Origin: Nocardia iowensis
Lineage (GTDB): Bacteria > Actinomycetota > Actinomycetes > Mycobacteriales > Mycobacteriaceae
Assembly: GCF_019222765.1 (NCBI RefSeq)
Contig: NZ_CP078145.1
Span: 3,224,001-3,288,000, forward strand
Reading direction: 5' to 3'
Length of the DNA: 64,000 bases
Part shown: positions 954 to 2,552 of the stretch, in pieces
Position numbering within the stretch: position 1 is the first letter of the stretch
Layout of the letters: every line of letters starts with the position of its first letter
Program-made: the position numbers and the translations under genes
Notes under the pieces: generated by a model
The model's database searches: none
Seen by the model: the letters and a program-made list of their open reading frames with translations, nothing else
What the model was told of the DNA's origin: nothing

Positions 954-1138
954 CTCGGCCGCAGCAGTCGGTAACCAAAAGCGCCAGCACGCAAGGCCTC
1001 TCGCCGTGCCTCACGGTCGACCGCCGGGCCGCATGTTTCGGGTTCGTTGAGCGGAACGCTGTCTGGTCGAGGGCGTTGGCAGCTACGACACTTTGTTCAT
1101 CAGAGTTTCAAGGCTGTGAAGCCGAACAGGAGGACAGC

Positions 1139-1492
1139 ATGCAATCTACTCGTGGGAACTCGGTTGCGACGGTAGCGAGGGAGCAGGCTCCGCTGACAGC
1201 GGAGGTGTATGGAGCTGAGCGAAAGCAAGCGGGTCTCGGCGTGGCGGCCCGACCAACAGGGGCAACCTTTGGCTCGCTTGTGGCGACTCCGCCGAAGCAT
1301 CCAGCCATTGACCTCTCCGCACTGGAGCCAGCGCCGTTCGAAGAGCTGCTGCAAACAGTTCGAGAGTGGGTCGCGACGCCGACCGAAAATAGAGGTGAGC
1401 CGGACCGGAAACTCATGGCCTGCGCCACCTACTACCAGACCTACGTTTGGACCGGCACGACCTTGGATCCATGGGGCGCCGACTGTGACTGA
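1139..1492 (+). CDS. Probable graspetide (omega-ester/amide RiPP) precursor peptide
   Basis: A 117-residue peptide starting at ATG 1139 behind a GAACAGGAGGA ribosome binding site. Its role as a precursor is inferred from its position 28 bases before an MvdD-type ATP-grasp ligase gene and from its C-terminus. Residues 95-117 (CATYYQTYVWTGTTLDPWGADCD less the start) contain Thr97, 101, 105, 107 and 108 as possible hydroxyl donors and Asp110, 115 and 117 as possible carboxyl acceptors, the pairing that graspetide ligases join into macrolactones. Two cysteines (95, 116) bracket the segment and might form a disulfide. The long leader has a predicted helix, ALEPAPFEELLQTVREW, a plausible ligase recognition element. 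I match it to no named precursor family. An alternative is an unrelated small protein, but length, placement and composition favour a RiPP. Confidence 0.65.
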   Translation: MQSTRGNSVATVAREQAPLTAEVYGAERKQAGLGVAARPTGATFGSLVATPPKHPAIDLSALEPAPFEELLQTVREWVATPTENRGEPDRKLMACATYYQTYVWTGTTLDPWGADCD

Positions 1493-1520
1493 TTCATAAT
1501 TGCCGCGGGAAGGCGCTGAG

Positions 1521-2552
1521 ATGATTCTGATCATCAGTGATCGAAGGGACATCCACGCATATTTCGTCGTCGTTGAACTGGAGAAACTGGGCATCGAATA
1601 CGGGTTTCTCAACGGCGCGGACTTTCCAACAAGTATGACCATGTCGCAGTCGATTGGAGAAGGTGCAGATCTTTGCACCTTCTCCCTCGAAGACGGCTCG
1701 GTTGCGAAAAGTTCCGAGGTGCACGCGGTCTGGTACCGCAAGCCGGGCCTGCCCCGCCTCCATCCTGAGACTGGACCGCACGAACGAGAGTTTGCTTTCG
1801 GTGAATCTCGCGAGGGTCTGCGCGGGCTCTATGATGCACTTCGGCACGCGTATTGGATCAGTCCGCTGGACAATATCAACAAGGCGTCGAACAAGCTACG
1901 TCAGTTGCGCACGGCCGCTCGCTTGGGCTTCAACGTTCCCAGGACTGTTTACACAAATGATCCGACAACCGCGCGTGCGTTCATATCGAATATTGCGGGA
2001 GGTGTCATCTATAAGCCGGTGGGTGATGGGGCGCTGTTCGAGCGGGCGGGCAGGTGGGATCCAGGGACAGTCGTCGGCGAGATATATGCGTCACTGCTCG
2101 ATCAGTCGACCATCGAAGCAGGTATTTCCCGGTTCTCGGCGTGCCCGGCACTGTTTCAAGAGTACATCGAGAAAGACGTCGAGCTTCGCGTAACTGTTGT
2201 AGGCCGATCGGTCTTCGCGGCTGAATTGGATTCGCAATCACACCAGGACGCATCCGTCGACTGGAGACGTGGAGATGTGCTCGCCATAGAACATCGCGTG
2301 CACGAACTTCCCATCGAGGTGCGCCAAAAATGTGTGAGCCTGGTCGAGGAGCTAGATCTGGAGTTCGGCGCCATCGATATGATCAAATGCAAAGATGGAC
2401 GCTATGTATTTCTGGAAATAAATCCCAACGGCCAGTACCTGTGGATCGAAGATATGACCGGGCTCAAAATCAGCAGAGCGATTGCTGAGCAACTCCAGCG
2501 TGGCCACGAGGAGGCAATTCGTCGCGGTCGTGCGTGCCAGGTTCCGTGTTAG
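1521..2552 (+). CDS. ATP-grasp RiPP ligase (MvdD/TgmB-like)
   Basis: A 343-residue ATP-grasp enzyme of the group that uses ATP to activate Asp/Glu side chains of a precursor peptide and close ester or amide rings. The N-terminal pre-ATP-grasp domain carries WYRKPGLPRL near residues 71-80, matching the W-x-R-R/K-P signature of microviridin-type ligases. The C-terminal half has the nucleotide and Mg2+ binding features GDGALFERAG, LFQEYIEKDVELRVTVVG and FLEINPNGQYLW near 297-308. The start is ATG 1521 after GGGAAGG at 1507-1513. Its likely substrate is the peptide just upstream. The usual tgmC-type methyltransferase and a dedicated exporter are absent nearby. Codons such as AAA, ATA, TAT and AAT are commoner than in neighbouring genes, which hints at acquisition by transfer. 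Confidence 0.85.
   Translation: MILIISDRRDIHAYFVVVELEKLGIEYGFLNGADFPTSMTMSQSIGEGADLCTFSLEDGSVAKSSEVHAVWYRKPGLPRLHPETGPHEREFAFGESREGLRGLYDALRHAYWISPLDNINKASNKLRQLRTAARLGFNVPRTVYTNDPTTARAFISNIAGGVIYKPVGDGALFERAGRWDPGTVVGEIYASLLDQSTIEAGISRFSACPALFQEYIEKDVELRVTVVGRSVFAAELDSQSHQDASVDWRRGDVLAIEHRVHELPIEVRQKCVSLVEELDLEFGAIDMIKCKDGRYVFLEINPNGQYLWIEDMTGLKISRAIAEQLQRGHEEAIRRGRACQVPC

What the first reader, a model, noticed from the sequence alone, without database searches (positions are those of the whole stretch)
1139..2552. Compact two-gene graspetide-type RiPP locus with an unfamiliar core
A 117-residue peptide whose last 23 residues hold five Thr and three Asp between two Cys precedes an MvdD-like ATP-grasp ligase by 28 bases. 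Known from families: such ligases join Thr/Ser hydroxyls or Lys to Asp/Glu. Seen: the ATP-grasp motifs and operon spacing. Inferred: that the peptide is the substrate, with Thr-Asp esters. The tgmC-type methyltransferase common in actinobacterial relatives is absent, the leader is unusually long, and I match the core to no named group.
Basis: partly seen in the sequence, partly recalled or inferred. Interest (0 to 1): 0.75.

Follow-up and report, generated by a model that had tools for sequence, protein, structure and literature searches.

The report
New family of ring-forming graspetide genes
A rare two-gene cassette in a Nocardia bacterium encodes a peptide and the enzyme that probably ties its tail into rings; the tail carries an eight-residue signature (DPWGADCD) kept in distant relatives, which points to an apparently undescribed family within a known class of cyclised peptides.

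Summary
Observation confirmed: a 117-aa ORF (1139-1492, AGGAGG site) lies 28 bases before a 343-aa ATP-grasp ligase (1521-2552). The ligase belongs to the graspetide (MvdC/MvdD) superfamily by profile and predicted fold (best solved matches AMdnB, MdnC, CdnC, PruB). The precursor matches no Pfam or NCBIfam model above cut-off, and not TIGR04186. Of 150 Nocardia genomes searched, only the own and one other hold the pair, with cores differing at one residue; flanks differ, so the unit is these two genes. All four share VATPP in the leader and the core C-x-[ST]-x2-Q-[ST]-Y-x2-[ST]-x(4-9)-DPWGADCD: three hydroxyl donors and three Asp acceptors, no Lys. I infer three Thr/Ser-Asp esters, perhaps with a Cys-Cys disulfide. 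Thr107 and Thr108 are not conserved. The remote precursors have 68-69 more residues before VATPP, so the 'long leader' is a shortened form. New variant of a known kind; chemistry untested, and an earlier listing in supplements that I could not read is not excluded.

The parts
1116..2529 (+). two-gene cassette: extent of DNA homology with the Nocardia transvalensis copy; flanks unrelated
   Evidence: alignment and blastn (1116-1187 at 87.5%, 1243-2529 at 90.3%; nothing adjoining on either side)
1128..1133 (+). ribosome-binding site AGGAGG of the precursor, kept in the second copy
1139..1492 (+). precursor gene, 117 aa
   Evidence: homologues; no Pfam, NCBIfam (above cut-off) or PHROG family
1280..1294 (+). 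leader motif VATPP (residues 48-52), invariant in all four precursors
   Evidence: alignment
1328..1351 (+). leader segment PAPFEELL (residues 64-71); E69 L70 invariant in four; resembles, but does not exactly fit, the Phhx(1,2)h leader motif of graspetides
   Evidence: motif from PMC8939145 section 5
1421..1489 (+). core region C95-D117: C-x-[ST]-x2-Q-[ST]-Y-x2-[ST]-x(4-9)-DPWGADCD
1466..1489 (+). acceptor block DPWGADCD (D110, D115, D117, C116), invariant in all four
1521..2552 (+). graspetide-type ATP-grasp ligase, 343 aa

Best explanation
A two-gene graspetide unit. The ribosome makes a 117-aa precursor; the ATP-grasp ligase recognises its leader (around VATPP and the following EL segment), phosphorylates Asp side chains of the C-terminal DPWGADCD block and joins them to side-chain hydroxyls of the upstream Thr/Ser at positions 97, 101 and 105, giving up to three omega-ester macrocycles (-54.03 Da); the two invariant Cys probably form a disulfide. 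An unlinked host protease and exporter would release the product. Shown: gene pair, ligase family and predicted fold, conservation of core and leader motif, pairing of precursor and ligase in distant hosts. Inferred: substrate relation, ester chemistry, ring number and connectivity, disulfide, leader recognition, cleavage.
For: Ligase is an MvdC/D-type enzyme by HMM and its AlphaFold model (pLDDT 93) matches graspetide macrocyclases before RimK. In the alignment of 24 ligases K125, K165, R223, D286, E299 and N301 are invariant. The precursor is under purifying selection, strongest in the last 26 codons: dN/dS 0.04 versus 0.55 in the leader and 0.09 in the ligase (one pair). Remote precursors: P0122 (E 6.9e-8) is DMB42_35570, the ligase P0006 (60% identical) DMB42_35565, both Nonomuraea sp. 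WAC 01424 with a 330,975-base contig; P0123 (E 0.26, weak alone; 31% to P0122) has one contig, of 8,715 bases, the length and sources given for ligase P0039. Three S/T and three D kept in 4 of 4, no Lys in any of the four cores. Motif DNA found in 2 of 83 Nocardia genomes sampled, the two that hold this ligase, and in 0 of 30 Streptosporangiaceae genomes that hold the best-scoring outside ligases.
Against: No chemistry is shown. Only two close and two remote precursors are known; the motif was read from these same four, so its fit to them is no test. P0123's link to P0039 rests on equal contig length and sources, P0122's on locus tags. NCBIfam does not set the ligase apart: outside ligases and clade members alike score best, and below cut-off, on TIGR04187. 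Surplus Ser/Thr (T107, T108; others in P0122) could also be donors. The conserved Cys could mean other chemistry. No promoter-like site, and no protease or dedicated exporter, was seen beside the genes.
Confidence: 0.75

Rival explanations
1. Same enzyme class and substrate but a different outcome: one or two esters, or thioesters using the invariant Cys, with the remaining conserved residues serving recognition or folding.
For: Cys95 and Cys116 are invariant in four; the PMC13097080 introduction says some synthetases can form non-native thioesters; P0122 and the window carry surplus hydroxyl residues.
Against: Equal count, 3 and 3, of conserved hydroxyls and Asp in the four precursors.
Confidence: 0.35
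2. The modified object is a protein tail, not a released peptide: in the 193-201-aa forms the ligase cyclises the C-terminus of a larger protein that stays attached.
For: P0122 and P0123 share an N-terminal region (31% identity over 180 columns that include it); no GG site in the window precursor, and no protease or dedicated exporter among the flanking ORFs scanned.
Against: Both Nocardia copies lack most of that region, so it is dispensable there; leader peptidases are not typically encoded in these loci (PMC8939145, section 5). The AlphaFold model of P0122 is too poor to show a domain (pLDDT 37).
Confidence: 0.2
3. RimK/glutamyl-ligase-like activity: the enzyme adds amino acids to a C-terminus rather than cyclising.
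For: RimK ATP-grasp domain over cut-off.
Against: Graspetide models and folds score far above RimK; the MvdD pre-ATP-grasp domain is present; the extreme C-terminus is not conserved (DCD end versus DCDNLQV/DCDRLQV).
Confidence: 0.04
4. The small ORF is spurious or an unrelated small protein next to an orphan ligase.
For: No family match above cut-off; the transvalensis copy did not appear in the protein searches, so it may not be annotated.
Against: SD site, purifying selection, homologues tied to related ligases.
Confidence: 0.01

Closest known systems
Microviridins (MdnA/MdnB/MdnC, AMdnB) and the Chryseobacterium ligase CdnC
   Same: MvdD pre-ATP-grasp plus RimK-type ligase, nearest solved structures; precursor gene next to ligase; Thr/Ser donors upstream of acidic acceptors (recalled for microviridins)
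   Different: single ligase, no Lys in core so no lactam from the core, no PFFARFL leader, core DPWGADCD with two Cys
Actinobacterial tgmA/tgmB/tgmC (TIGR04186/TIGR04187/methyltransferase; group 13 graspetides)
   Same: ligase scores best against TIGR04187 (250 bits)
   Different: below that model's cut-off (350), no TIGR04186 match, no methyltransferase seen nearby, ligase outside the other actinobacterial branches sampled
Plesiocin ligase PsnB
   Same: ligase fold; nested Thr-acid rings are a possible connectivity here
   Different: 22% identity; single core, Asp acceptors, Cys
RODEO groups 27, 28 and 35 (only synthetase plus precursor; PMC13097080 section 7)
   Same: two-gene architecture

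Membership tests
Graspetide (omega-ester-containing peptide) biosynthetic unit | ATP-grasp ligase of the MvdC/MvdD/TgmB superfamily | tested here: met
   (full-length matches; equivalog cut-offs not reached)
Graspetide (omega-ester-containing peptide) biosynthetic unit | adjacent precursor gene conserved with the ligase | tested here: met
   adjacency seen in two Nocardia, read from locus tags in Nonomuraea, from contig length for P0123
Graspetide (omega-ester-containing peptide) biosynthetic unit | C-terminal core with conserved Thr/Ser/Lys donors and Asp/Glu acceptors | tested here: met
Graspetide (omega-ester-containing peptide) biosynthetic unit | Phhx(1,2)h leader motif | tested here: inconclusive
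   PFEELL in the window misses the second hydrophobic, PYAEL in L001 fits if Ala counts; the Pro is not kept in P0122/P0123; PMC8939145 finds the motif in about half of precursors
Graspetide (omega-ester-containing peptide) biosynthetic unit | side-chain ester or amide macrocycle in the product | not testable with these tools
   needs mass spectrometry/NMR
tgmABC system (TIGR04186/04187 + methyltransferase) | precursor matches TIGR04186 | tested here: not met
   (E up to 10); also not for P0122, P0123
tgmABC system (TIGR04186/04187 + methyltransferase) | ligase over the TIGR04187 cut-off | tested here: not met
   250 of 350 bits
tgmABC system (TIGR04186/04187 + methyltransferase) | adjacent methyltransferase | tested here: not met
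   none among the ORFs scanned
Microviridin | ligases over MvdC/MvdD cut-offs and a Lys-containing core (core pattern recalled) | tested here: not met
   scores below cut-offs; no Lys in core

The most novel reading that the evidence does not exclude
A new graspetide family whose ancestral precursor was a 190-200-aa protein with its own N-terminal region and a C-terminal tail cyclised by three Ser/Thr-Asp esters and clamped by a disulfide; Nocardia stripped that region in steps (117 aa, 100 aa), showing a protein-tail modification turning into an ordinary leader/core peptide.
Probability: 0.2. Interest if true: 0.7.

Novelty: new variant of a known kind. Interest (0 to 1): 0.5.

Why it matters
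It adds a minimal, two-gene graspetide system with a sharply defined core signature and a pair of invariant cysteines, small enough to test directly by co-expression. It also gives a search motif (VATPP ... C-x-S/T ... DPWGADCD) that may help to find the unknown substrates of related orphan ligases, for example those of Sphingomonas and Desulfobacter seen, whose neighbours I could not read.

Tried and rejected
Precursor search with the single sequence found only itself (8 candidates, E <= 1); the two-sequence profile (169 candidates, 3 with E <= 10) found P0122 and P0123. Attempts to reach DNA of clade ligases failed: the genome-contig scan gave 8 loci, one over 40% identical; viral contigs none, then one 30% relative; plasmids best 39%; phages 2 records, 31-34%; precursors against plasmids none. 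394 Actinomycetia, 54 Nonomuraea, 341 Streptosporangiaceae and 397 Mycobacteriales genomes showed no further clade member among the candidates scored (in only the best 5-6 candidates per genome were scored). (rpoB, to find the Nonomuraea genus) left 80 of 394 genomes unscored and was used only to pick a handle.

Considered and rejected: homology of this precursor to the Nocardia-wide paralogue precursors (hhalign E 0.17 and 0.045, probabilities 0.4% and 1.2%). A clean empty insertion site: in the rows no other genome has the two flanking genes side by side, but only two candidate stretches per genome were scored there. AlphaFold of P0122: pLDDT 37, unusable. In one search loci on minus strands were read in the wrong orientation; one search repeated them.

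Literature: PMC8939145 (abstract, section 5, section 6 parts 1-2 of 3, passages), PMC13097080 (abstract, sections 5 and 7), PMC10787088 (passages). Searches 'graspetide+ATP-grasp+precursor' (15 papers), 'Nocardia+graspetide' (1), 'Nocardia+microviridin' (4), 'prunipeptin' (3), 'DPWGADCD' (0): listings only except for the three papers named. What I read does not describe this pair; 'Nocardia' does not occur in the main text of PMC8939145 or PMC10787088. Supplements, where precursor clusters are listed, could not be read, so an earlier listing is not excluded.

Full report
Observation. The ORF at 1139-1492 (117 aa) and the ATP-grasp gene at 1521-2552 (343 aa) are present as described, 28 bases apart. 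The precursor start has AGGAGG five bases upstream of its ATG, kept in the second copy. The tail has five Thr, three Asp and two Cys; D117 follows the second Cys. Only 1 of 226 ATG ORFs in the window has such a tail.

The ligase. Pfam finds the MvdD pre-ATP-grasp and RimK domains. NCBIfam gives TIGR04187 250 bits, MvdD 222, MvdC 220, each below its cut-off; four other members of its group, a Nonomuraea ligase outside it and the Nocardia paralogue likewise score best and below cut-off on TIGR04187, so these models do not separate the group. The nearest solved sequences are 5ig8 (MdnB), 7m4s (AMdnB), 5ig9 (MdnC) and 7mgv (CdnC). The AlphaFold model (24 rows, pLDDT 93) matches AMdnB, MdnC, CdnC, PruB and PsnB ahead of ArgX, LysX and RimK. 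A search of 5.8 billion proteins gave 2526 relatives at E <= 1e-30, of which 120 were listed. In a tree of those 120 plus 30 rows that I chose from fetched loci (quick method, SH-aLRT only, 48 of 147 inner branches open) the window ligase lies in a 20-row group (99) with Nonomuraea sp. WAC 01424 (60%), Sphingomonas sp. RHCKR7 (52%) and mostly sequences from jgi, ena and lgn sources, beside a 22-row group (98) with Desulfobacter hydrogenophilus and P0039. The other actinobacterial rows and the Nocardia paralogues fall elsewhere.

A rare two-gene cassette. Among 150 Nocardia genomes only the own genome and G136 hold a ligase over 40% identical; G136's contig has the length of the Nocardia transvalensis BJ06-0148 contig of L001 (265,844 bases), which is also why I call the host Nocardia. 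A third, shortened copy is annotated in a Nocardia brasiliensis strain (P0004). DNA homology covers window 1116-2529 at 87-90% and stops at both ends, so the shared unit is the two genes. G+C is 56-63% in the two genes against 64-67% in three neighbours, GC3 0.62-0.66 against 0.76-0.87: consistent with horizontal arrival. Of the flanking ORFs examined and the eight around the second copy, none is a methyltransferase, peptidase or dedicated peptide exporter; an EamA-family transporter lies 5.6 kb away, LtrA is next to and ThrE 5.4 kb from the second copy.

Selection. Between the two Nocardia copies dN/dS is 0.128/0.233 for 74 leader codons, 0.016/0.383 for the last 26 codons and 0.032/0.353 for 335 ligase codons. 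One pair and 26 codons is little data, but the direction is clear: the tail is the constrained part. The transvalensis precursor lacks 17 leader residues in frame.

Remote precursors. A profile of the two precursors found P0122 (193 aa, E 6.9e-8) and P0123 (201 aa, E 0.26). P0122 is DMB42_35570 of Nonomuraea sp. WAC 01424; the ligase P0006 is DMB42_35565 and its contig has the same 330,975 bases (I read locus numbers five apart as neighbours). P0123's own E-value is weak, but it is 31% identical to P0122 over 180 columns (pairwise E 3e-22) and ends in DPWGADCDRLQV against DPWGADCDNLQV. The three precursors scanned (window, P0122, P0123) match no Pfam or NCBIfam model above cut-off; the L001 precursor was not scanned.

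Anatomy. Invariant in all four: V48 A49 T50 P51 P52, E69 L70, C95, Q100, Y102 and D110-D117 (DPWGADCD). Positions 97, 101 and 105 are Thr or Ser in all four; 107 and 108 are not kept. Thus three hydroxyls spaced by four and three Asp, no Lys. VATPP starts at residue 116-117 in the remote precursors, 48 in the window and 31 in the transvalensis copy: the remote forms carry 68-69 more residues before it than the window. The window keeps a remnant (PLTAEVYGAERKQAGLG against PLVAEIIETIAKKVNLG), most of which the transvalensis copy lacks. So VATPP to core is the likely minimal leader.

Specificity. The DNA pattern for DPWGADCD occurs in 2 of 83 Nocardia genomes, the two with this ligase; in 0 of 30 Streptosporangiaceae genomes holding the best-scoring outside ligases; in no viral contig; once in the window; and in 7 of the 132 loci then held, all of them copies of the two known sites.

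Mechanism. By the chemistry of graspetide synthetases (carboxylate phosphorylation by ATP, then attack by a side-chain nucleophile; PMC13097080 introduction) the ligase most likely forms up to three omega-esters between residues 97/101/105 and 110/115/117. Ring order is not predictable from sequence; nested rings are my guess. The invariant Cys pair suggests a disulfide. None of this is shown.

Place among known systems. It works like a graspetide and meets the sequence-level criteria of that class. It fails the tests for the tgmABC system and for microviridins. Whether it equals one of the numbered groups or clusters in PMC13097080 or PMC8939145 could not be tested because core lists are in supplements.

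Noticed in passing
own genome G000:C1:5861098-5862533 (L130 3499-4934); loci L010, L012-L039: A second graspetide-like pair, nearly genus-wide in Nocardia: an ATP-grasp ligase (relatives at E<=1e-10 in 145 of 150 genomes) behind a precursor of about 139-160 aa. In all 29 loci inspected (own plus the 28 best-scoring others fetched) it ends in CDSLD: 19 end GAT[FY]TYCQTK...SDDGI[NS]CDSLD, 9 GATFTFRDGINCDSLD, 1 another form. The own copy has no Pfam match. Worth its own study.
   Followed up: partly
P0004 (Nocardia brasiliensis, 8.75-Mb contig): A 93% identical ligase annotated at only 218 aa, lacking about the N-terminal third: truncated, broken or misannotated in that strain.
   Followed up: no
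Nonomuraea loci L040, L089, L111, L115: A separate two-gene type with 50-53-aa GG-leader precursors ending CY-x-T-x-G...WVSDY beside 39-42% identical ligases.
   Followed up: no
L003 7522-7851; L046 (reverse strand): Cys-rich putative precursors (Leifsonia and G206) before related ligases, another type of core.
   Followed up: no
G136:C4 201178-201783 and 216296-217656: A relative of the hemerythrin gene that flanks the cassette in the window lies 15 kb from the cassette in G136 too, in a different arrangement.
   Followed up: partly
G000:C1:8163409 and 8801393: Two rpoB-type genes in the own genome; a duplicated rpoB linked to rifampicin tolerance is known in Nocardia (recalled).
   Followed up: no
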